Shown in pieces: positions 4,140 to 15,566 of a stretch of DNA of 36,992 bases. Source of the DNA: Rickettsiales bacterium (GTDB lineage Bacteria > Pseudomonadota > Alphaproteobacteria > Rickettsiales > UBA8987); assembly GCA_033762595.1 (NCBI GenBank), contig JANRLM010000094.1, positions 1 to 36,992 of the forward strand, given 5' to 3'. The notes below the pieces were generated by a model. It did no database searches. It was not told where the DNA came from and saw only the letters and a list, made by a program, of their open reading frames with translations. The number at the start of each line of letters is the position of its first letter. The first letter of the stretch is position 1. Both the position numbers and the translations under genes were made by a program.

Positions 4140-7100
4140 TTAATCCTCTTCATTCGTATTCAAAATGGATTTCCCTAGATTGAATCTTTTGTAGATGGCA
4201 GGTAATACAAATAGGGTCAGGATTGTTGCAGTTATTAATCCACCTATCACTACTGTTGCCAGAGGTTTTTGGACTTCTGCACCTGAACCTGTCGCAATTG
4301 CCATTGGTACAAAACCAAGCGAGGCAACAAGGGCTGTCATCATTACTGGTCTCAGGCGTGATATAGCCCCATCAAAGATTGCCTTAGTTTCTTCAATACC
4401 TTCTTTTACAAGTTGGTTGATCTTTGTTATCATTACCAGACCATTAAGAACCGCCACACCTGAAAGCGCAATAAAGCCAACAGCGGCTGATATTGAAAAT
4501 GGCATACCACGCAGGAACAAAGCTAAAATTCCGCCTGTGAGTGCCAAAGGAACTCCACTAAATACTAACAAAGCCTGTTTTACTGATGAAAGAGCAGAAT
4601 AAAGCAGTAAGAAAATTAAAAAGAAACAGGCAGGAACAACAATTGACAATGTTTTAGTAGCTGTTTCCAGATTTTTGAATTGTCCGCCCCACTCAATCCA
4701 GTAACCAGCAGGGATTTTGAATTGTTTATCAAGTTTTTCCTGAGCCTCTTCAACAAAAGAGCCTATATCTCGGTTTCTGATATTTGCCTGAATAACGATA
4801 CGGCGTTTACCGTTTTCCCTGCTTATCTGATTCAGACCTTTAGTAACCTTGATTTCAGCAACTTCTTTAAGAGGAATAAAATTAGGGCGTTGATGGCTTA
4901 CAATTCCAAAACCTTCATCATTATCATCTTTTGGAAGCATTACAGGAAGATTGCCAATAGCCGCAATATCGTTTCTAAGGTTTTCAGGCAATCTGACCAT
5001 AATATCAAACCTTCTGTCACCTTGAAAAACAATACCGGCTTCCTTTCCACCAATTGCAATTGATATAACATCAAGGACATCAGAAGGATTTAAACTATAT
5101 TGCGAAATTGCTTTTTTATCCAGATTGATTTCCAGCATTGGTAAGCCTGATGTCTGCTCTACTTTAGCATCTTCAGCCCCTTCAATCTTACTGATTATAT
5201 TCAGGATTTTTTCAGCACTTGGCTCAAGAATTTCAAACTCATCACCATAAATTTTTATGGCAATATCACTACGAACACCAGAAATAAGCTCATTGAATCG
5301 CATTTGTATAGGCTGGGTAAATTCATAATTGTTAGCAGGAATTTGCTTCACTACTTTTTGAATTTTTTTAATTATCTTATTTTTAGGCATGGATGGGTCT
5401 TGCCATTCATCTTTAGGTTTTAGAATTATAAATGTATCAGAAACATTTACTGGCATTGGGTCTGCTGCCATTTCTGCCGTTCCTGTCTTTGAAAATACAA
5501 AAGCTACTTCTGGAACTTTGCTGATTACTTTTTCAACTTCAAACTGCAATTCTTGCGATTGCGTTAACGAAGTGCTAGGGATACGCATTGCGTGCATTGC
5601 TATATCTTTCTCATCAAGGGTTGGGATAAATTCCCTGCCCATAAAAGAAAATACAATCAATGAAACAAAGAAGGCCCCGAATGATATTATGATGGTTTTA
5701 ATTGGGTTCTGTAACGATTGCCTTAACCATTTTGAATAATGGTCTTTTGACCTTTCAATTATCTTACTATCTTTTTCTTCAACTTTACCTGTTACAAAAA
5801 TTGCTATCATTGCTGGAATAAAAGTTAAAGAAAGTATGAAGGCAGCAATTAATGCAATAATTACTGTTAGTGCCATAGGCTCAAACATTTTGCCTTCAAC
5901 ACCTGTAAAAGTAAGTAGCGGTATATAAACCATTATGATTATCGCCTGACCAAATACAGATGGCTTTATCATCTCACGACTTGCAACCATTACCTCGTTC
6001 AACCTTTCAGATAATCTCAGGTTTCTGTTTAATTCATGTTGTTTTCCAGCAAGCCTTTGCAGGCAATTTTCAGTTATAATAACTGCACCATCAACTATTA
6101 AACCAAAATCCAAAGCACCCAAACTCATCAGGTTTCCACTGATCTTTAGCTTAACCATCCCTATCGAGGTCATTAACATTGAAATAGGTATAACAAGGGC
6201 GGTAATTAATGCCGCCCTTATGTTACCGAGTAGCAAGAATAGAATTACTATCACAAGCAAAGCACCTTCAGCCAGATTCTTTTGAACTGTGCTTATAGTT
6301 GCATCTACAAGTTTTGTTCTGTTAAGAACAGTTTTTGCTACTATACCTTCTGGTAATGATTTATTAATTTGGGTGATTTTTTCATCAACTCCCTGTGAGA
6401 CAGTTCTGCTGTTTTCTCCTATAAGCATCAAAGCAGTTCCAACAACCACTTCCTCGCCATTTTCACTTGCCGATCCTGTTCTAAGTTCTTTACCTATTAA
6501 AATATCCGCAATATTTCTTAAATAAACTGGTGAACCTTTATGTGAGGCAATAACGATATTACCAATTTGTTCAATATTCTGTATCCTTCCGTCTGAGCGA
6601 ACAACATAAGCCTCACCGTTATTTTCAATATAATTAGCACCAATACTGAGATTGTTCTTTTCAAGTGCATTAACTATATCTGCAAATGAAAGCCCCAAGG
6701 CAATCAGTTTTTCAGGTGATGGATGTATATGATATTGTTTTGCATATCCGCCTATCGTATCAATTCCAGCCACACCCTTAACTGATTTTAACTGTGGCTT
6801 GATTATCCAATCCTGAACTGTTCTCAAGTATGAAGCCCGTTCTAAATCAGATTTTAACTTAGAACCCTCTGGGGTTAAATAACTCCCATCTTTTTGCCAG
6901 CCAACTTTACCTTCTTTTATTTTAGCACCTTTGCCTTTTGGATTTTTATATTCAACAGTCCACATATAAATTTCGCCAAGCCCTGTGCTTATTGCTCCCA
7001 TTTTAGGTTCAACATTTTGCGGTAATGATTCTTTTGCTTCCGAAAGCCTTTCATTTACCTGCGCTCTGGCAAAGTAAATATCTATACTCTCTTCAAATAT

Positions 7101-7385
7101 AGCCGTTACTTGTGAAAATCCATTTCTGGAAATTGACCTTGTGCTTTCTAATCCAGGTATTCCAGCTAAAGCGTTTTCTATTGGAAATGTAACCTGTTTT
7201 TCAATTTCAACAGGTGATAAAGCAGTGGCTACCGTATTAACCTGAATTTGCTTGTTGGTAATATCTGGTACTGCATCTATGGGTAGATTACCAAGTGAAT
7301 AAACGCCCAAGCCAGCAACAGCAGCCGTTATTAATGCAATCAGATACCTGTTTTGCAGTGAAAATTTTAGGATTTTTTCTATCAT
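4140..7385 (-). CDS. czcA: CzcA-type heavy-metal RND efflux pump
   Basis: A 1081-residue inner-membrane proton/metal antiporter, the core of a tripartite pump. The N-terminus (first helix, then DAVPDITNKQIQ) and two blocks of helices around large periplasmic loops are typical of the HME-RND family. The fourth helix carries the DFG-x3-DGA-x4-EN motif (D426, D432, E439), which marks pumps for divalent cations (Zn, Co, Cd, Ni) rather than the Cu/Ag pumps, whose motif is A-x-x-G-x3-DA. About 30 extra residues lie near 145-180 of the first periplasmic loop. It works with the adaptor encoded 35 nt upstream and the outer-membrane factor at 8735-10027. Metal choice is inferred from the motif. Confidence 0.95.
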   Translation of the reverse strand: MIEKILKFSLQNRYLIALITAAVAGLGVYSLGNLPIDAVPDITNKQIQVNTVATALSPVEIEKQVTFPIENALAGIPGLESTRSISRNGFSQVTAIFEESIDIYFARAQVNERLSEAKESLPQNVEPKMGAISTGLGEIYMWTVEYKNPKGKGAKIKEGKVGWQKDGSYLTPEGSKLKSDLERASYLRTVQDWIIKPQLKSVKGVAGIDTIGGYAKQYHIHPSPEKLIALGLSFADIVNALEKNNLSIGANYIENNGEAYVVRSDGRIQNIEQIGNIVIASHKGSPVYLRNIADILIGKELRTGSASENGEEVVVGTALMLIGENSRTVSQGVDEKITQINKSLPEGIVAKTVLNRTKLVDATISTVQKNLAEGALLVIVILFLLLGNIRAALITALVIPISMLMTSIGMVKLKISGNLMSLGALDFGLIVDGAVIITENCLQRLAGKQHELNRNLRLSERLNEVMVASREMIKPSVFGQAIIIMVYIPLLTFTGVEGKMFEPMALTVIIALIAAFILSLTFIPAMIAIFVTGKVEEKDSKIIERSKDHYSKWLRQSLQNPIKTIIISFGAFFVSLIVFSFMGREFIPTLDEKDIAMHAMRIPSTSLTQSQELQFEVEKVISKVPEVAFVFSKTGTAEMAADPMPVNVSDTFIILKPKDEWQDPSMPKNKIIKKIQKVVKQIPANNYEFTQPIQMRFNELISGVRSDIAIKIYGDEFEILEPSAEKILNIISKIEGAEDAKVEQTSGLPMLEINLDKKAISQYSLNPSDVLDVISIAIGGKEAGIVFQGDRRFDIMVRLPENLRNDIAAIGNLPVMLPKDDNDEGFGIVSHQRPNFIPLKEVAEIKVTKGLNQISRENGKRRIVIQANIRNRDIGSFVEEAQEKLDKQFKIPAGYWIEWGGQFKNLETATKTLSIVVPACFFLIFLLLYSALSSVKQALLVFSGVPLALTGGILALFLRGMPFSISAAVGFIALSGVAVLNGLVMITKINQLVKEGIEETKAIFDGAISRLRPVMMTALVASLGFVPMAIATGSGAEVQKPLATVVIGGLITATILTLFVLPAIYKRFNLGKSILNTNEED

Positions 7386-7420
7386 AAAAATATTTTTAAG
7401 GTTTTAAATGGTTTGATGGC

Positions 7421-8713
7421 TTAATGGTCATGGCTTGCACCAGCTTTTTCAATATCAGCCTTTATTACAAAGCTGTTTTTACTGACATAATCATCGCCGC
7501 TTTCAATACCTTCTAAAACTTCCACATAATTATTACCTCTTTCTCCAAGCTCAAGCATTCTGACTTCATAGGTTTCACCTACTTTGGCAAATACTACATC
7601 CATATCTCTAAACTTCTGTAATGCCGAAATCTTGACTGCTAAAGGCACTTCTTTTTCATCAATAATAACTTGCGCCTTAACGCTCATTCCACTTCTGAAA
7701 AAATTTTGAGTGTTATCAATAAAAGCTCTAGCAACTACTGTTTGACTTGATGCTTCGGTTGTTTGTAAGATTGCTGTAATAGTTGATTCAGCATTGTATT
7801 TTTTATTCTTACTTTGAATGGAAATTTTTTGCCCTTTTTTTATTGACTCAACATCTTTTGAAAAAACGCTAAATTCAGCCATCATTGAAGATAAATTTGC
7901 TACTACAAAGAGTGGTGAGTCGTTGGTTACTTCGCCAACACTAGCATTTCTTTCAATAATAACTCCGTCAATAGGTGCAGTAACAGGATAAATCTGCAAG
8001 CTATCATTACCCTCAACCATCGCTAAAACATCACCTTTCTTTACAGGTTCATTCAGGTCTTTCTTTATTTCTTTTACAACACCTGAAAATCTTGCTTTTA
8101 TCTGCGCTGATTTGTTGGGATCAAGATTAATTATCCCATATAAAGGAATAGTTTTTTCTATTTTTACAGGGGCAACCTTCTCAATTTCAATTCCAAGATT
8201 TTTAGCTGCTTCCTCGGTTATTTTAACCCTGCCTTCGTGTGAGTCATATTTCCATTCGTAAGTTTCCCCATCATATTTTGCGGTTACTTTTACATCAAAT
8301 GAATGAGGTTCTTTTACTTCCTCATTACTCTTGAAAAATTTCTTATCCTTCAAGAAAGTAAAATTATCTTTTTTCCCACCAAGCCTTGTAAGCTCAACAT
8401 TTAACTCAACATCTTTCGGGTTTAGCAACTGCCCATCATCATAAGCGTAAAACCTAAATTCAGGTGGAATACCATCTTCAAATATAGTTGCCTCAATCGC
8501 AAAATCATCTTTTTCAAGTAACCTTCCGCCATGAACTCCCTTTTCAAATTCCTTTTCACCCCCTTCTTCGCCATGCTCGTCATGACCGCCCCCATGTTCA
8601 TCGTGATGACCAGATTCCGAATGCGATTCTTTATGATGAGCTAAATAATCATAGGTAATGTAACCACCAGCTAAAGTTAGTGCTATTGATAGTAATAAAA
8701 TTTTATTTTTCAT
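7421..8713 (-). CDS. czcB: RND efflux periplasmic adaptor (CzcB-type)
   Basis: A 430-residue membrane-fusion protein that would link the pump to the outer-membrane factor and may pass on metal. It starts with a single helix or uncleaved signal (residues 5-24). Next is a strongly His/Glu/Gly-rich stretch (about 26-62, many HxxH and HDEHG units), likely a metal-binding region. The lipoyl/barrel-sandwich halves (IKARFSGVVKEI and YPVTAPIDGVI) surround a short hairpin, and a beta-barrel and membrane-proximal domain follow. The last residues are again metal-binding in look (ASHDH). The stop-to-start gap to czcA is 35 nt, consistent with one operon. Confidence 0.93.
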   Translation of the reverse strand: MKNKILLLSIALTLAGGYITYDYLAHHKESHSESGHHDEHGGGHDEHGEEGGEKEFEKGVHGGRLLEKDDFAIEATIFEDGIPPEFRFYAYDDGQLLNPKDVELNVELTRLGGKKDNFTFLKDKKFFKSNEEVKEPHSFDVKVTAKYDGETYEWKYDSHEGRVKITEEAAKNLGIEIEKVAPVKIEKTIPLYGIINLDPNKSAQIKARFSGVVKEIKKDLNEPVKKGDVLAMVEGNDSLQIYPVTAPIDGVIIERNASVGEVTNDSPLFVVANLSSMMAEFSVFSKDVESIKKGQKISIQSKNKKYNAESTITAILQTTEASSQTVVARAFIDNTQNFFRSGMSVKAQVIIDEKEVPLAVKISALQKFRDMDVVFAKVGETYEVRMLELGERGNNYVEVLEGIESGDDYVSKNSFVIKADIEKAGASHDH

Positions 8714-8734
8714 ATATCCTCTAGTTTTTGTAAT

Positions 8735-10027
8735 TTATTTTGTTAAAAATCTTTCAATATTTGCTTTTTGAATATGATATTCTTTCAAAGCAGAATTATA
8801 ACTATACCTTGCTTCAAAAAGGGTTCTTTGAGCATCTAAAACTTCTAAATACGGAAATTTTCCTGCGTTATAGCCGTCTCTGGTTTGATTAAAGGCTTTT
8901 TCTGCAGAGGGTAAAACTTGATTCTTAAAATTTTGAATTTGTAAATTTGCAACCTCAAGCAAATTAAGAGAATTGATAAACTCATTTTTTAAACTTACCA
9001 AAGTTGCTTCATTAGACTTATTCGTTTGCTCTAACTGACTTTCTGCTTTGATAATATTTCCCTTATTCTGATTAAAAATAGGTATGGGAATTGATAAGCC
9101 AGCAATAAAAGCCTGATTATCTGTTTGCTGGAATTGCCTAATACCCAAGCTTATTGTAGGATCTGGAATTGCATTTGCTTTCTCCAGCTGGTAATTGGCT
9201 TTTGCTTGCTTTGAAGAATTTTCTAAAGCTATATTATACGGAGTTTTTTCAATAATACTTAAAACTTCCTCTGGGTTAATTTTCTCTATCTCATCATAAT
9301 TCCAAAAATCGTTATCAGATAATTCAAAGTCAATTTGGTTTTTCCCCCATAAATTTGCCAAGTTATTTTTTGTAATTTTAGCTTCTTGTTCTGCTTTTTG
9401 CAGCTGAATATTTGCATTTGCTAAGGCAACTTCAGCCTTGCTTTTCTGAAATGCTGGTTCAGCAGCAGCATTCACTCTTTTAGTAACATTTGCCAAAACC
9501 TGCTCAGCTAATTTTTTTTGCTCTATTGCAATCTTTAAGTTTTCACTTGCAAATATAGCTTCTGCATAAGCGGTTTTAGTAGCCTTTATCAACTCTAGTT
9601 TTGTAATTTCAAACTTATTATATGCTAGTTTTACAGCCTGTTTTGAAGCATCAATTCTAGCTCCATACTTTCCGCCAACTAAAACTTGTTGCGAAATTCC
9701 ATAGGTGGTTTGTGCAGAATCATACCCACTATAAACACCATCTCCACTAAAATCCTCAGCTTCAATGGTAACTTGTGGGTTAACATAATTTTTAGATTGC
9801 TTATAATCACCTTCGCTTGCTAAAGCTTCAAATCTAACAGACTCTAATGCAGGAGAATTGTTTAAAACCTTTTCAACAATTTGTTTTAAGCCAAGGTGGT
9901 TAGTTTTTACCTGTTCTGATTTTGTATTTTTAGTTGACTTTGCAAGTACATTAACATCAATATTGCCAACGAGGCTAGTAGTGCAGGTAAAAACCAATGC
10001 ACTAAGTAATAATTTTGTATTTTTCAT
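8735..10027 (-). CDS. czcC: TolC-family outer-membrane factor (CzcC-type)
   Basis: A 430-residue outer-membrane channel with signal peptide (to about residue 30) and two repeats of the OEP family rich in long helices (for example AEQVLANVTKRVNAAAEPAF, and QTRDGYNAGKFPYLEVLDAQ near the end, the latter a hallmark block). It gives the exit duct for the pump encoded by the next two genes. Its ATG (10027) has no good Shine-Dalgarno, and the 12 nt ending 7 nt before the ATG can pair with the 3' end of the preceding Cys/His-rich gene, so translation may depend on that gene being read. Confidence 0.93.
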   Translation of the reverse strand: MKNTKLLLSALVFTCTTSLVGNIDVNVLAKSTKNTKSEQVKTNHLGLKQIVEKVLNNSPALESVRFEALASEGDYKQSKNYVNPQVTIEAEDFSGDGVYSGYDSAQTTYGISQQVLVGGKYGARIDASKQAVKLAYNKFEITKLELIKATKTAYAEAIFASENLKIAIEQKKLAEQVLANVTKRVNAAAEPAFQKSKAEVALANANIQLQKAEQEAKITKNNLANLWGKNQIDFELSDNDFWNYDEIEKINPEEVLSIIEKTPYNIALENSSKQAKANYQLEKANAIPDPTISLGIRQFQQTDNQAFIAGLSIPIPIFNQNKGNIIKAESQLEQTNKSNEATLVSLKNEFINSLNLLEVANLQIQNFKNQVLPSAEKAFNQTRDGYNAGKFPYLEVLDAQRTLFEARYSYNSALKEYHIQKANIERFLTK

Positions 10028-10592: not shown

Positions 10593-11567
10593 CTAATCAG
10601 GATATTCAAGATTTTTAATTCGGTTTCTAAATGCTGAATCAAACTTTTCTAAAGTGTCTTTCAGCCATTTAAACTGACTGTTCCAATTTGACTCATCTGA
10701 TGGGTTCATATCAGATATTAAAATGATTCTAGAAGCTCTTTTTTCAGGAAGCTCTTTCCAATCTAACGCAGAACCAATTTCCGCTTCAATTTTCTCTTTC
10801 TCTTCCTTTAAAACATTAAAGAAATGCTTGGCATATTCAGGCTCACTTAAATACAAATCAACGCCAATTCTTTCCTCTCTGGTGCTCAATAGAGCATTGA
10901 TATGGAAGTGGCTTCTACCGATGGTAAAAGTCAACCAGTGCTGGTAACCAGGGCGTTGAGGCTTCATTTTTGAGCCTGTTTCTTTTAAATATTCTGAAAA
11001 CTTCGTCCAATATCTAAATTGCATCTGTTTGGTTTCAGAATTTTCAGCATTACTAATATTTCTAGCCGCTGAACTTACATATTTTGACCAATCATTCGGC
11101 TGAGAAACGATGTTAAATTTCGGAGCTGGTGCTGAATCATCAATTTGCCAAAGCTCAACTTCCAAGCCAAAGAATCTAAAATTTTCGCTGGTTATTCCGT
11201 TAAGCCAATCAAGAGCAGCGCGATGTTCTTCAGTGAACTTTGAAGCAACCCATATGATGGTTACAGTTTGCAAACCTGCGGCATAAGTTAAAAGCTGGCC
11301 AAGATGTTTATGATCAGTTTTCTCGATCTGATTTTCAATCAAAACAAAAGAATCGTCCGCAATATTGCGGCATAAAATATCTGCCCTGAACGGACCAACA
11401 TCTTTTTCTTGAGCTTCAACTTCTAGCTCAATACCAATTGCATCACCAAGAATTTCAATATTTTCTTTTTTCGCAAGCCAAGGGGTGAAGTCACCATCTT
11501 CGGTGCTCCATATATTACGCAACTCAACCCTTTCTAATTTTCCCAGCTTTTTATTCACATTAATCAA
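10593..11567 (-). CDS. DUF4268 protein with PD-(D/E)XK nuclease-like domain
   Basis: A 324-residue soluble protein. The N-terminal 150 residues look like a PD-(D/E)XK nuclease fold: D63 in FRADILCR and E78-x-Q80 in LIENQIEKTDH, the second strand being the E-x-Q variant of E-x-K. Residues from about 185 on (RYWTKFSEYLKE, then IGVDLYLS) match the DUF4268 domain. The start is TTG 11567 or GTG 11558; neither has a clear ribosome-binding site. It is divergent from the ABC-3C operon and shares its 107-nt spacer and operator. Proteins of this kind are often found in defence islands; target and activity are unknown. Confidence 0.8.
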   Translation of the reverse strand: MINVNKKLGKLERVELRNIWSTEDGDFTPWLAKKENIEILGDAIGIELEVEAQEKDVGPFRADILCRNIADDSFVLIENQIEKTDHKHLGQLLTYAAGLQTVTIIWVASKFTEEHRAALDWLNGITSENFRFFGLEVELWQIDDSAPAPKFNIVSQPNDWSKYVSSAARNISNAENSETKQMQFRYWTKFSEYLKETGSKMKPQRPGYQHWLTFTIGRSHFHINALLSTREERIGVDLYLSEPEYAKHFFNVLKEEKEKIEAEIGSALDWKELPEKRASRIILISDMNPSDESNWNSQFKWLKDTLEKFDSAFRNRIKNLEYPD

Positions 11568-11674: not shown

Positions 11675-12415
11675 ATGAGTGCTTCTTACTCAACCAAACT
11701 TCTTCTTGCGATGAGAAGCGGGGAACGCTGTGCTCTTCCTGAATGCAGAGCCAATCTTACGTGCGATGGTGTTAAAAGTGCCGCTGTAGTAATTGGCGAG
11801 GCGGCTCATATTTACGGTGAAAAAGAAAGTTCTGCCCGTTACAAAAATGAAATGACGGATGATAGCAGAAATCACTATGACAATTTGATGTATCTATGCC
11901 CAACATGTCATACAAAAATTGATAAGCAGATTGCTGATTATCCCGCAGAAAAATTAATAGAAATAAAAAAATCTCACGAGGCATGGGTTTCAGAACGGCT
12001 TGATGAGAGCATGTCAGAAGTAAGTTTTTCAGAGCTTGAGATTTCTGCAAAAGCGATTGCTTCAGGGCAGCATTTTGTGAGTGGGGATTTTCACGTTATC
12101 AGTCCAGAAGAGAAAATTCAGAAGAATGGGTTAACCCAAGAAGTCCGAGCACTAATATCCACGGGTCTCAGTAGAAGCTCTGAGGTTAGTGATTATTTAG
12201 TAAAGGCATCACAACTGGATGCTAAATTTCCAGAGCGACTCAAAGATGGATTTAAGGAGAAGTATTCAGAGCTAAGGCAATCTTTCTCTGGCGACGCCCT
12301 CTTTATGGCAATGTTTGAATTTGCAAAGTCAGGACAGCAAGATTTCAAACAGCAGGCGGCGAGCCTAGCGATACTGACGTATTTGTTCCATTTATGTGAG
12401 GTGTTTGAAAAATGA
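11675..12415 (+). CDS. ABC-3C system HNH nuclease effector
   Basis: A 246-residue two-part protein. Residues 1-90 form an HNH/treble-clef nuclease: zinc ligands C19, C24, C75 and C78, catalytic His in EAAH (H45), N70 in HYDNLMYLCPTCH, and H79. Residues about 105-160 are a linker (SPEEKIQKNGL). From about 165 the helical C-terminal domain (ERLKDGFKEKYSELRQ, then SLAILTYLFHLCEVFEK) matches the CTD that defines effectors of ABC three-component systems. It would cut nucleic acid when the partner ATPase signals. The gene overlaps the next by 4 nt (ATGA). No Shine-Dalgarno is seen at the ATG. GC content and codon use look higher than in the flanking genes. Confidence 0.88.
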   Translation: MSASYSTKLLLAMRSGERCALPECRANLTCDGVKSAAVVIGEAAHIYGEKESSARYKNEMTDDSRNHYDNLMYLCPTCHTKIDKQIADYPAEKLIEIKKSHEAWVSERLDESMSEVSFSELEISAKAIASGQHFVSGDFHVISPEEKIQKNGLTQEVRALISTGLSRSSEVSDYLVKASQLDAKFPERLKDGFKEKYSELRQSFSGDALFMAMFEFAKSGQQDFKQQAASLAILTYLFHLCEVFEK

Positions 12416-12639
12416 TTCTTCCAAACAAATACCTTCGTGAACATGAAACACTTATCGGTGTGGGTTCTTTGTTGCTGAAACATTTAACTGTTGAGAAAAC
12501 TTTGTCTAGTCTCTGGGATGAAGTGAAATCCGCTTCGAATATCGGAAATTTTGAAAGATTCGTGTTGGGCTTGGACTTACTGTTTCTGCTTGGGCTTGTT
12601 GAAACTAAAAGCGACAAAATAGCGAGGGTGGCAGCATGA
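12412..12639 (+). CDS. ABC-3C middle component (MC6-like)
   Basis: A 75-residue protein that begins MILPNKYLREHETLIGVG and continues with 'LWDEV' and 'FERFVLGLDLLFLLGLVE'. I recognise this as a middle component of ABC three-component systems, closest to the type called MC6. It is probably a small winged-helix-like adaptor linking ATPase and effector. Both ends overlap the neighbours by ATGA, so the three products are translationally coupled and likely made in fixed ratio. The small size makes it easy to miss; identification rests on the opening block and the context. Confidence 0.82.
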   Translation: MILPNKYLREHETLIGVGSLLLKHLTVEKTLSSLWDEVKSASNIGNFERFVLGLDLLFLLGLVETKSDKIARVAA

Positions 12640-14378
12640 TTTATCGCATATATGCAAGTGACCCTAGGTTCAAAGCCGTTGAGTTTCAGAGCGGCTTAAA
12701 CATTATACTGGCGGATAAAAAAAGTGAGTCTGATAAAAAGGATTCCAGAAACGGGCTGGGCAAAACAACCCTCATCAACATCATTCATTTTTGCTTGGGA
12801 GCTGATTTTAATAAAAGAAGTAAAAAGATTCTTCCATTGGACACAATAAAAGATTGGACATTTTTTATTGAAATGGATGTGTGTGGTGAGAAAATTACTG
12901 CCTCAAGAAGCATAGAAAATCATGGAATTATCAAGGTTAATGGTAAATTGGAGAGACTCCCAATAGCTCCAGAAAAAGATAAAGACCAAGGATTTGATTT
13001 TTACAAGTTGGAAGACTGGAGACGTTTGTTGGGTATAAGTCATTTTGGTTTGTCGAGCACTAGCCGAACAAAATATGCCCCTTCTTTTAGAAGTTTGGTC
13101 TCCTATTTCATAAGAACAGGAATAGATGCTTACAGCACACCCTTTAATTATTTTAGATCACAAAAAACTTGGAACACGCAAGTATGTAATGCATTTCTGC
13201 TTGGTCTAAATTGGGAACATGCATCTGATGTCCAGATAATAAAAGATAAGGATAGCGCCGCAAATTCTTTAAACACCGCTGTCAAAACTGGCATTGTCTC
13301 TTCTAAGGGCGAACTTGAAGCGGAGCGTGTTAGATTACAGATAGAATTCGATAGAGAGAGATTCGCACTTTCTGAGTTTAAAGTGCATCCGCAATATCAG
13401 CGGCTACAAGAGCAAGCAAACATAATAACTCGCAGCATTCACGATGTCTCTAATAAGAACCTCATGCTTCGTAGAAAGCTAGAGCGCTATCAGGAGTCCG
13501 TTCACTCTGAGCAAGCTCCAGATCTTTCTGATGTTGAAATACTCTATCAGGAAGCGGGGCTAACATTTGGGGATACCGTTAAAAAAACTCTCGCGGAAGC
13601 CAAGAAGTTTCATAACGATATAGTACAAAACAGAAAACATTTTCTACAGGTTGAGATTGAAGAACTAAAAAATCAAATCACACAAAATGATAATGCCGTT
13701 AAATCTGATACTTCTAAACGAGCGGAAATAATGTCCGTTTTGAGCACTCATGGCGCATTGGAAGAATTTACTCTTCTGCAAGAGCAGCTTCTAGTAAAGA
13801 AGGCAAGGCTTGAGAATATACGTCAGCGAATTTCAGATATCCAAGAGATGTCGTCTCGGAAGAAAGAAATTAAAGCCGAGAAAATTGAACTAGAAACCAA
13901 ACTTCAGAGAGATTACGAACAATCAAGATCAGATTGGGAAAAAGCGGTTGTAGGTTTTAATGAAAATTCGCAGGCTCTTTATAACGAATCTGGGAATCTG
14001 ATCATTAACGTATCAGATAATGGCTATAGCTTTGATGTTGAGATACCTCGTAGTAGTAGCGAAGGCGTCGGCAAAATGAAAATCTTCTGCTATGATCTAA
14101 TGTTGGTAAACTTATTTGCTAAACGTGGTCTGATTAATTTTTTGGTACATGATAGCACCATCTTTGATGGCGTGGACTCAAGACAAACTGCACAGGCTTT
14201 GGAGCATGTACATCGGAAAGCATGTGAAAGTGGTTTCCAATATATTTGTACCTTTAACTCGGACGCACTACCTAGGGGTGATTTCAGTAGCGAGTTTGAT
14301 GTTAATAGCTTTATTCGTTTAACACTTAAAGACCAAGACCCCAAAGACAGCCTTATGGGGTTCAGGTTCAATGAGTAA
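12636..14378 (+). CDS. ABC-3C system SMC/Rad50-like ATPase (DUF2326-type)
   Basis: A 580-residue ATPase that would bind DNA or a nucleoprotein and switch on the HNH partner. Walker A is RNGLGKTTL (residues 38-46). The middle, about 210-450, is long charged helix (coiled coil; for example residues 220-300 and 330-440). The C-terminal half holds a degenerate signature block (SSSEGVGKMKIFCYDL, about 473-488) and Walker B 'NFLVHDSTIFDGVD', where D506 is followed by Ser507 instead of the catalytic Glu. This H-D-S form is what I recall as usual for DUF2326-type ABC-3C ATPases. It is the last gene of the three-gene operon. Confidence 0.88.
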   Translation: MIYRIYASDPRFKAVEFQSGLNIILADKKSESDKKDSRNGLGKTTLINIIHFCLGADFNKRSKKILPLDTIKDWTFFIEMDVCGEKITASRSIENHGIIKVNGKLERLPIAPEKDKDQGFDFYKLEDWRRLLGISHFGLSSTSRTKYAPSFRSLVSYFIRTGIDAYSTPFNYFRSQKTWNTQVCNAFLLGLNWEHASDVQIIKDKDSAANSLNTAVKTGIVSSKGELEAERVRLQIEFDRERFALSEFKVHPQYQRLQEQANIITRSIHDVSNKNLMLRRKLERYQESVHSEQAPDLSDVEILYQEAGLTFGDTVKKTLAEAKKFHNDIVQNRKHFLQVEIEELKNQITQNDNAVKSDTSKRAEIMSVLSTHGALEEFTLLQEQLLVKKARLENIRQRISDIQEMSSRKKEIKAEKIELETKLQRDYEQSRSDWEKAVVGFNENSQALYNESGNLIINVSDNGYSFDVEIPRSSSEGVGKMKIFCYDLMLVNLFAKRGLINFLVHDSTIFDGVDSRQTAQALEHVHRKACESGFQYICTFNSDALPRGDFSSEFDVNSFIRLTLKDQDPKDSLMGFRFNE

Positions 14379-14786: not shown

Positions 14787-15566
14787 ATGAATCGCTTAGA
14801 ATTAAATAAATGGTATTTCAAATCTTACGAAGATTTTGATAACTCAGTAAAAAAGGCAATAATAACTTCTAAATCTGTGGCGGGAATTCTTGAAACACCT
14901 CGCAGAGCATATGCTACTGTGCTTTTTACAAGAATTACTGTGCTAGCAACAAGCCTTTTAAAGCTTGCACCAAAAGAACTATCACCCCATGAACATTATG
15001 ATTTTGCTTCTATAGCAAGTATTGCTAGGAATATTTTAGAGTGTTATTTATTTATGTATTATTTTTCTGTTGAAGAAATTTCTGACGATGAATGGCAGGC
15101 AAGATTATTTTTAACACAATTACATGATTGCATATCAAGAATTGAGCTTTTTCAAACGCTGGAAAAAATAGAGCAAAAACCCAATAATGATATTTTTGAA
15201 TTTAGAGAGCAAGCTAATGAAATAAAGAAGAATTTGTTAAAAAACAACTTTTTTAATACATTTACAGAAAAACAAAAAACAGATTTTTTTAAAGGAAAAA
15301 AGGTTCTATATTGTAGTCAGGATTCTATTGTTGAAAAGCTAGGTGCAAGTGTTTCTGATTATAGATTGCATTATCAAATTTTTTCTCGTTATCTACATAC
15401 GTTACCCTTTTCTTTTTATAGGTCGCCAGAAGATTTGAATAATACTGGAGGAAAGAATGACAAAGATATTGGTTATACTGCTATGACCTTTGAATATATT
15501 CAAGGAGTAATAGAAAACGCAAACAAAGATATTATAAAAATGTTTCCAACTTCATTCAAAAAATAG
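14787..15566 (+). CDS. Unknown all-helical protein (DUF5677-like in look)
   Basis: A 259-residue soluble protein, mostly helical. I do not recognise it with certainty. The block 'ASIARNILECYLFMYYF' (about residues 73-89) and 'YRLHYQIFSRYLHTLPFSFYR' (about 192-212) are reminiscent of DUF5677-like proteins, in which an R-x-x-x-E motif and a late Tyr/His stretch recur. Codon use is very AT-rich, unlike the ABC-3C genes to the left, so it probably has a separate origin. Its stop is 5 nt from the stop of the convergent gene at 15572. Position suggests the accessory island continues to here. Confidence 0.55.
   Translation: MNRLELNKWYFKSYEDFDNSVKKAIITSKSVAGILETPRRAYATVLFTRITVLATSLLKLAPKELSPHEHYDFASIASIARNILECYLFMYYFSVEEISDDEWQARLFLTQLHDCISRIELFQTLEKIEQKPNNDIFEFREQANEIKKNLLKNNFFNTFTEKQKTDFFKGKKVLYCSQDSIVEKLGASVSDYRLHYQIFSRYLHTLPFSFYRSPEDLNNTGGKNDKDIGYTAMTFEYIQGVIENANKDIIKMFPTSFKK

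What the first reader, a model, noticed from the sequence alone, without database searches (positions are those of the whole stretch)
11675..14378. Complete three-gene ABC-3C conflict system with an HNH effector
Three genes joined by two ATGA overlaps encode an HNH nuclease with a CTD tail, a 75-aa middle component and a DUF2326-type SMC/Rad50-like ATPase. ABC three-component systems were defined computationally as conflict systems; for most subtypes trigger and target are, to my knowledge, untested. All HNH metal and catalytic residues (C19, C24, H45, N70, C75, C78, H79) and Walker A are intact, so it looks active. Codon use differs from the neighbours, which suggests recent transfer.
Basis: partly seen in the sequence, partly recalled or inferred. 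Interest (0 to 1): 0.75.

Follow-up and report, generated by a model that had tools for sequence, protein, structure and literature searches.

The report
HNH-type ABC-3C defence operon
Three overlapping bacterial genes encode a known but little-tested kind of anti-phage alarm: a Rad50-like DNA sensor, a small adaptor and a DNA-cutting enzyme; the set is an ordinary member of its family, although stray phage copies that lack the cutting enzyme are worth testing.

Summary
Window 11675-14378 (+) carries an HNH effector (246 aa), a 75-aa middle component and a 580-aa DUF2326 ATPase, joined by two ATGA overlaps. The middle component is Pfam MC6, above its cut-off. The effector tail belongs with CTD10: weak by itself, clear with relatives. 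PADLOC already lists effector and ATPase as candidate defence system PDC-M68. Of the 80 nearest relatives fetched from named genomes, 73 of 76 evaluable loci have all three genes. Closest modelled relative: YydD-YydB (PDB 9a6c); Lamassu LmuACB is more distant.

Verdict: new member of a known kind, probably a DNA-structure alarm that unleashes an HNH nuclease; the mechanism is inferred. Unlooked-for: two unrelated phage lineages carry middle component and ATPase with the effector reduced to its last 19 and about 9 codons. They could be counter-defence decoys, co-opted recombination parts or partial captures; base composition suggests that one capture is recent. Activity of the window's system was not tested.

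The parts
11675..12415 (+). effector gene (PDC-M68A): HNH nuclease + CTD10-type tail, 246 aa
11687..12013 (+). HNH nuclease domain, residues 5-113; C19 C24 C75 C78 metal knuckle, H45 N70 H79 active site (role of residues by general knowledge of HNH enzymes)
   Evidence: Pfam HNH_2 23.7 bits, cut-off 21; fold match Cap5 8fmf_C Z 17.0, rmsd 2.4, 108 aligned; residue conservation
12026..12412 (+). helical C-terminal domain (CTD10 family), residues 118-246, likely docking/oligomerisation part
   Evidence: YydB 324-473 in 9a6c_B Z 11.4, rmsd 2.9, 138 aligned
12398..12403 (+). GAGGTG, likely ribosome-binding site of the middle component, inside the codons of the effector end CEVFEK
   Evidence: read directly from sequence; same or similar motif kept in both effector-less phage copies; function inferred
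12412..12639 (+). middle component, MC6 family, 75 aa; overlaps both neighbours by ATGA
12636..14378 (+). ABC ATPase of SMC/Rad50 type with DUF2326 (PDC-M68B), 580 aa
12744..12770 (+). Walker A, SRNGLGKTT, residues 37-45 (K43)
13260..13985 (+). short coiled-coil arm and hinge, residues about 209-450; no CxxC zinc hook
   Evidence: predicted helices; no CxxC
14058..14066 (+). ABC signature region SEG, residues 475-477
   Evidence: motif assignment from general knowledge of ABC ATPases
14139..14156 (+). degenerate Walker B, FLVHDS (residues 502-507): D506 kept, catalytic Glu replaced by Ser507
   Evidence: Ser in 43 and Thr in 3 of 46 sequences; motif assignment from general knowledge

Best explanation
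It is an ABC three-component (ABC-3C) defence operon of the PDC-M68 / MC6-CTD10 subtype. Shown: three overlapping genes, intact HNH residues, an SMC/Rad50-type ATPase fold by prediction, and conservation of the trio. Inferred: at rest two ATPase subunits and the middle component hold the HNH effector by its C-terminal domain, so that its nuclease domains cannot pair. The ATPase heads recognise an unusual DNA end or secondary structure made during phage or plasmid replication. ATP binding, rather than fast hydrolysis (Walker-B Glu is Ser/Thr in all aligned relatives), closes the heads. The change frees the effector, its C-terminal domains bring HNH domains together as in activated Cap5, and DNA is cut without sequence choice, which stops the phage or kills the cell. 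Confidence in 'ABC-3C defence operon' alone is about 0.9; for the release-and-oligomerise mechanism about 0.5.
For: MC6, DUF2326 and HNH_2 above curated cut-offs. PDC-M68A/B at 286/645 bits. Trio in 73 of 76 evaluable of 80 fetched loci, with the middle component confirmed by model in all 73. In 68 automatically called trios the 4-base overlap is kept at effector-MC in 60 and at MC-ATPase in 52. Related MC/ATPase pairs go with HNH, REase-like or other N-termini while the tail stays CTD10, as expected if the tail docks and the head acts. The tail resembles the YydB C-terminus and the ATPase resembles YydD, the two proteins of one cross-link-based model (9a6c: tail Z 11.4, ATPase Z 35.7). The HNH fold is closest to Cap5, whose activated form is a tetramer by the entry titles. 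PMC12409362 (passages) reports in an addendum, from preprints, that LmuA is liberated and forms a homotetramer on activation; PMC10586767 (section 8) reports that LmuB generally carries a Walker-B Glu-to-Gln change and may be poor at hydrolysis; PMC12904381 (passages) lists DNA-end and hairpin sensing for Lamassu. Neighbouring gene 10593-11567 matches another candidate defence family, PDC-S11, at 431 bits.
Against: No function of any PDC-M68 system was found in print. The Pfam CTD10 score of this effector alone is below cut-off. The tail's fold match (Z 11.4) lies under the level of about 13 that the tool gives as reachable by chance for helical bundles, although the next non-HNH helical row is at Z 3.0. 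Profile searches of PDB sequences with the ATPase and MC alignments found no credible relative, so the link to YydD and Lamassu rests on predicted folds. Chains of Lamassu entries (Z 19.7-23.6) stand little above general Rad50/SMC chains (Z 19-23), so Lamassu-specific steps are analogy. No oligomer was modelled. Three relatives keep MC and ATPase without a whole effector gene, so the pair may have some use, or at least no cost, without it.
Confidence: 0.6

Rival explanations
1. Same family, but the nuclease is not released: it stays on the ATPase complex, as Mre11 does on Rad50, and cuts only the DNA end that is being sensed, so it spares the cell.
For: The ATPase is Rad50-like (Rad50 and SbcC chains among the 50 best rows, Z 19-22); the HNH domain is small and fused to a likely docking tail.
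Against: The nearest functionally described systems are reported to release and tetramerise the effector (PMC12409362 addendum, passages). Effector heads in this clade are exchangeable (HNH, REase-like, and short heads with no nuclease recognised), which fits general toxicity better than precise end processing.
Confidence: 0.22
2. A toxin-antitoxin-like or selfish stabilising module, with MC-ATPase as antitoxin, not selected for phage defence.
For: Present on plasmids: the ATPase is found in 66 of 72,556 plasmid records, 59 over at least 80% of its length; a likely toxic nuclease lies beside its likely keeper; codon use points to transfer.
Against: Two conserved sensor-type proteins are a costly antitoxin; the Rad50-type fold suggests DNA sensing; a neighbouring candidate defence gene. 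Not exclusive of defence.
Confidence: 0.1
3. Inactive relic in this genome.
For: Composition is not adapted to the host; some relatives have lost or broken effectors (L065, L095, L101; L114).
Against: All three ORFs are open, and the active-site and Walker-A residues that are invariant in relatives are kept.
Confidence: 0.06

Closest known systems
PADLOC candidate system PDC-M68 (PDC-M68A, PDC-M68B)
   Same: Effector and ATPase match over nearly full length at 286 and 645 bits.
   Different: PADLOC-DB returned no match for the middle component; candidate status only, no paper found.
YydB-YydD (PDB 9a6c; Bacillus subtilis proteins by recall)
   Same: ATPase fold Z 35.7 over 548 residues; effector tail fold Z 11.4 over 138 residues; B. 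subtilis was the one of 14 control genomes that rang for PDC-M68B.
   Different: The YydB chain has 481 residues and only its residues 324-473 were aligned to this effector; identity 18% in the ATPase and 11% in the tail.
Lamassu / DdmABC (LmuACB; PDB 9hqx, 9uxh, 9nyg, 9ux7)
   Same: Three-part plan: effector, small protein, short-armed Rad50-like ATPase without the normal Walker-B Glu.
   Different: ATPase fold match much weaker (Z 19.7-23.6); PADLOC gave only weak LmuB hits (best 39.9 bits) and listed no LmuA or LmuC hit; Ser/Thr instead of the Gln reported for LmuB; no zinc hook, which LmuB has in many but not all cases (PMC10586767); HNH instead of the Cap4 domain of the Vibrio system.
CBASS Cap5 (HNH-SAVED)
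   Same: HNH domain, Z 17.0 over 108 residues.
   Different: No SAVED domain recognised: the tail is a CTD10-type helical domain.
PDB 9om4, 'HNH endonuclease', 435 aa
   Same: Closest PDB sequence to the HNH domain: positions 5-115 of the effector profile, E 2.5e-35; window alone E 2.8e-16.
   Different: Match covers the HNH part only; the entry was not examined further.

Membership tests
ABC-3C system (as summarised in PMC10586767; the 2020 defining paper is not held) | SMC/Rad50-like ABC ATPase (DUF2326 in this subtype) | tested here: met
   DUF2326 131.2 bits, cut-off 28.7; fold matches
ABC-3C system (as summarised in PMC10586767; the 2020 defining paper is not held) | small middle component of an MC family between effector and ATPase | tested here: met
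   MC6 46.7 bits, cut-off 27.2
ABC-3C system (as summarised in PMC10586767; the 2020 defining paper is not held) | effector with catalytic head and ABC-3C C-terminal domain | tested here: met
   HNH_2 23.7 bits, cut-off 21. CTD10: own Pfam score 19.3 below cut-off 28.1, but six-sequence REase-tail model 62.9 bits. Of five HNH relatives scanned with Pfam, L011 scored 29.0 (above cut-off), L003, L020 and L024 16-24, and L006 showed no CTD10 hit. Fold match to YydB tail, Z 11.4
ABC-3C system (as summarised in PMC10586767; the 2020 defining paper is not held) | three-gene operon conserved in relatives | tested here: met
   73 of 76 evaluable loci (80 fetched, 4 at contig edges)
ABC-3C system (as summarised in PMC10586767; the 2020 defining paper is not held) | function in defence or conflict | not testable with these tools
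   needs experiment
PDC-M68 (PADLOC-DB 2.0.0) | matches to PDC-M68A and PDC-M68B | tested here: met
   286.1 and 645.5 bits over nearly full length
Lamassu (LmuACB) | LmuB-type ATPase | tested here: inconclusive
   weak PADLOC LmuB hits, best 39.9 bits; fold Z 19.7-23.6, near the Rad50/SMC rows at 19-23
Lamassu (LmuACB) | LmuA and LmuC families | tested here: inconclusive
   no LmuA or LmuC model listed at E up to 1 in PADLOC-DB; structural relation of the small subunit not tested
Lamassu (LmuACB) | Walker-B Glu replaced (Gln in LmuB per PMC10586767) | tested here: inconclusive
   Glu is replaced, but by Ser (43) or Thr (3) in 46 sequences
Lamassu (LmuACB) | effector release and tetramerisation | not testable with these tools
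   needs biochemistry or structures
CBASS type with Cap5 | SAVED ligand-binding domain behind HNH | tested here: not met
   tail is CTD10-type; no SAVED family listed for the effector in Pfam at E up to 1. PADLOC's SAVED-HNH and endonuclease effector models match the HNH part (most end by residue 119), but one, PDLC00746, aligns through residue 196 at 81 bits

The most novel reading that the evidence does not exclude
Phages carry the sensor half of this system on purpose. Two unrelated phage lineages (G828/G829 and G831/G832) keep intact middle component and ATPase genes while the effector gene is cut back to its last 19 and about 9 codons, a stub that keeps the likely ribosome-binding site and start overlap of the middle component. 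Such an effector-less pair could act as a counter-defence decoy: it would soak up the host's effector by its tail, or occupy the triggering DNA structures, and so hold the alarm off. If so, it would be a phage counter to the ABC-3C/Lamassu group, for which a February 2026 review table lists no inhibitor (PMC12904381, passages read; listings showed no such report).
Probability: 0.15. Interest if true: 0.75.

Novelty: new member of a known kind. Interest (0 to 1): 0.36.

Why it matters
The window's operon adds one clean, complete example to an untested subtype of ABC-3C, and the comparison gives that subtype firmer definition: invariant HNH residues, loss of the Walker-B glutamate in all aligned ATPases, and an exchangeable effector head on a conserved tail. 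The likeness to YydB-YydD means the subtype could be tested in a standard laboratory Bacillus. If the effector-less phage copies prove to be decoys, they would open phage counter-defence against SMC-type alarms to direct test.

Tried and rejected
Shared domain between effector and ATPase: Pfam CTD10 also hits the arm of the ATPase (window 32.3 bits, above the 28.1 cut-off; 4 of 5 other ATPases hit, 3 of them above cut-off). Not accepted as homology: BLASTP of L008 effector against L008 ATPase had best E 0.48; of all effector-ATPase BLASTP pairs the best E was 0.006; hhalign probability 0.7%, E 0.085; tail models reach at most 10.1 bits on 23 ATPases (E 0.001 for the best, HNH-tail model on L023). 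The best pairs share a register (effector about 141-195, ATPase about 249-304), not the Pfam one (286-394), so a remote relation is not excluded. A mixed Pfam model is the likeliest reason.

Empty site: five of six same-family genomes have a ThiD-like match; in the stretches taken from three of them (6-16 kb) only ThiD itself matched among 21 window proteins, so insertion could not be shown. Direct repeats around the operon are not convincing.

Host link of phage 1: its terminase has a relative in 1 of 71 genomes searched (G014, same order, 40% identity) and none in the window's genome, which is among the 71; this neither supports nor excludes a shared host.

Selection on phage 1 ATPase: a first polarisation with L044 as outgroup was flawed, because L044 has an in-frame stop; it was redone with L045-L047. 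Against the decoy reading: phage 1 MC+ATPase has GC 0.397 and GC3 0.355 in a phage of about 0.51 GC whose six tested genes have GC3 0.54-0.64, so capture looks recent, and the low dN/dS (0.053 with dS 1.57) may come from its bacterial past. The fragment also ends in a truncated HsdR, as a chance capture would. Phage 2 has the pair between ERF and YqaJ recombination genes, so a recombination role is as likely. Effector loss is not clearly commoner in viral contigs: 2 of 12 distinct evaluable against 3 of 76 bacterial, Fisher p 0.14; p 0.011 if truncated or frameshifted effectors are added on both sides (4 of 12 against 4 of 76), a choice made after seeing the data.

A viral scan with the phage 2 ATPase found only its own two records. 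No match to three of these ATPases in 50,697 phage records. Fold searches listed no LmuA chain for the effector tail; absence is not evidence.
Full report
What is there. The effector has an HNH domain (HNH_2, 23.7 bits, cut-off 21) and a tail with a sub-threshold CTD10 hit (19.3 against 28.1). The 75-aa protein is MC6 (46.7 against 27.2). The ATPase carries DUF2326 (131.2 against 28.7). PADLOC matches effector and ATPase to PDC-M68A (286 bits) and PDC-M68B (645 bits) and the divergent upstream gene 10593-11567 to PDC-S11 (431 bits); NCBIfam gave nothing near its cut-offs. In 54 aligned effectors six of the seven are invariant and position 78 is Cys or His.

The tail. Five of the six REase-type effectors of the same clade were scanned and score 44-63 bits to Pfam CTD10; of five HNH relatives scanned, L011 passes (29.0), L003, L020 and L024 fall short (16-24) and L006 shows no CTD10 hit. 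A model from the six REase-type tails finds all nine HNH-type tails at 47-76 bits, the window's at 62.9, and a model from the nine HNH tails finds all six REase tails at 40-75 bits. The AlphaFold model of the effector (mean pLDDT 87.9) shows an HNH domain followed by a helical domain. By VIA-align residues 1-111 match Cap5 (8fmf_C, Z 17.0, rmsd 2.4, 108 aligned) and residues 101-246 match YydB in 9a6c (Z 11.4, rmsd 2.9, 138 aligned). The tool warns that helical bundles can reach about 13 by chance; here the next row that aligns to the tail is at 3.0, and the partner in the same entry is the best match of the ATPase. By sequence the closest PDB entry to the HNH part is 9om4 (E 2.5e-35), not examined further.

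The ATPase. The model (mean pLDDT 87.6) has the head split around a short coiled-coil arm. The best match is YydD in 9a6c, Z 35.7 over 548 residues; chains of Lamassu entries follow at Z 19.7-23.6 among Rad50/SMC heads at Z 19-23. It has no CxxC, so no zinc hook. K43 is invariant, as are H505 and D506, while the place of the catalytic glutamate is Ser in 43 and Thr in 3 of 46 sequences. PMC10586767 (section 8 read) reports a Glu-to-Gln change there in LmuB and suggests low or no hydrolysis; the parallel is functional, not proof of membership.

Spread and neighbourhood. PDC-M68B matches at E up to 1e-3, the window's own genome counted in each: 3 of 88 genomes of the order (of the other two, G018 is full length at 624 bits and G046 weak at 135 bits), 14 of 385 of the class and 28 of 398 of the phylum, the last two including many weak partial hits. 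In named genomes 491 relatives were found and the best 80 fetched, from Rickettsiales and Nitrospirales to cyanobacteria and methanogens. An automatic rule called 68 trios; all 68 effectors carry the tail by model (at least 71.9 bits) and 67 of the 68 middle-component ORFs match the middle-component model; in L079 the rule had picked a wrong ORF and the real one lies beside it (95 bits). Of the 12 loci that the rule missed, 4 lie at contig edges, 5 have the trio (L071, L072, L074, L086, L102), and 3 have lost or broken the effector (L065, L095, L101): 73 of 76 evaluable. Among the 73, I count 62 HNH heads (55 by pattern; 7 by eye), 1 frameshifted HNH (L114), 1 cut by a contig edge (L115), 6 short heads in cyanobacteria and 3 REase-like heads. 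These 80 are the nearest to the window, so HNH is probably over-represented. 66 of 72,556 plasmid records hold the ATPase, 59 over at least 80% of it; most of the 40 rows shown are already annotated with an ABC-three component system middle component 6.

Transfer. GC3 and codon use set the trio apart from other window genes. In a FastTree of the ATPases the window groups with phage copy L124 (support 0.998), then with a Rickettsiales MAG (0.994) and an alphaproteobacterial MAG (0.927).

Phage copies. The viral scan with the ATPase gave 12 contigs and the scan with the middle component added 4. L124 and L125 are identical over 11.7 kb and belong to a phage whose two overlapping records hold terminase, portal, head, endolysin and RecE-type exonuclease genes. 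The window's homology to it starts 55 bases before the middle component, with 2 mismatches in those 55 bases. The effector is reduced to its last 19 codons. The ATPase is 85% and the middle component 91% identical to the window's. L127 and L128 (their records are 99.97% identical over 8.6 kb) belong to another phage with tail, ThyX, ERF, YqaJ and SSB genes, where only the effector ending FEECEVFEH remains, at the end of a small ORF. No effector match was found elsewhere in these four records at E up to 1; the records may be fragments. Of 12 distinct evaluable viral lineages, 2 lack the effector, L131 has a truncated HNH head, L132 has a tail without recognised nuclease, and 8 look intact; L133 and L152 are at contig edges. 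Only the two effector-less lineages were checked for phage genes; for the others 'viral' is the label of IMG/VR.

How to read the phage copies. With L045 as outgroup the phage 1 branch of the ATPase has 88 synonymous and 34 replacement changes against a neutral expectation of about 3.2 replacement per synonymous change; the window branch has 64 and 42. This shows constraint, but the copy is far from the phage's base composition, so much of that branch may be bacterial. The phage 2 ATPase stands on a long branch of its own, open over 582 codons, with GC 0.347 in a 0.277 GC record. Decoy, recombination part and chance capture all stay open; I give the decoy 0.15.

Mechanism. Shown: gene order, overlaps, domain make-up, conserved residues, folds by prediction. 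From the literature on relatives (PMC12409362, PMC10586767 and PMC12904381, passages or one section read): sensing of DNA ends or hairpins, and release and tetramerisation of LmuA. Inferred: that this HNH effector is held by its tail and is activated by bringing HNH domains together, as Cap5 is. The review PMC10586767 counts ABC-3C within the Lamassu superfamily; my tests support 'works like Lamassu' as an analogy and leave 'is Lamassu' inconclusive.

Verdict. An ordinary but well-defined member of a known, little-tested kind.

Noticed in passing
L124 4722-7200 and L127 1143-3348: Two unrelated phage lineages carry the middle component and ATPase with only a stub of the effector gene; phage 1 also has a truncated HsdR N-terminus right behind the ATPase.
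   Followed up: partly
window 10593-11567 (-): Divergent neighbour is a DUF4268 protein matching PADLOC candidate PDC-S11 at 431 bits, so the trio lies beside another candidate defence gene.
   Followed up: no
window 14787-15566 (+): DUF5677 protein downstream of the trio, with very different codon use from it (GC3 0.196), possibly of separate origin.
   Followed up: no
window 13491-13817, ATPase residues 286-394: Pfam CTD10 scores above cut-off inside the ATPase arm as well as on effector tails of related operons; direct comparisons show no clear homology, so the Pfam model may mix two regions.
   Followed up: partly
L060, L081, L084, L087, L089, L098: Cyanobacterial versions replace the nuclease by a short head (L060: weak EAD9 hit, 15.6 bits, cut-off 25) on a CTD10 tail, perhaps an adaptor to a separate effector.
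   Followed up: partly
L065, L095, L101: Bacterial relatives in which the effector is deleted or broken while a middle component and ATPase remain; in L095 (Magnetococcales) almost the whole effector gene is gone.
   Followed up: partly
window 12357-12411 vs L124 4722-4776: The 55 bases before the middle component differ at only 2 places between window and phage 1, although the middle component differs at about 15%; perhaps a translation-coupling element (binomial P about 0.009 at that rate).
   Followed up: partly
L044: The Nitrospirales ATPase span, one of the closest to the window, contains an in-frame stop.
   Followed up: no
window 4140-10027 (-): Three consecutive genes that look like a CzcCBA-type metal efflux set (my reading of size and translations, no family search).
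   Followed up: no
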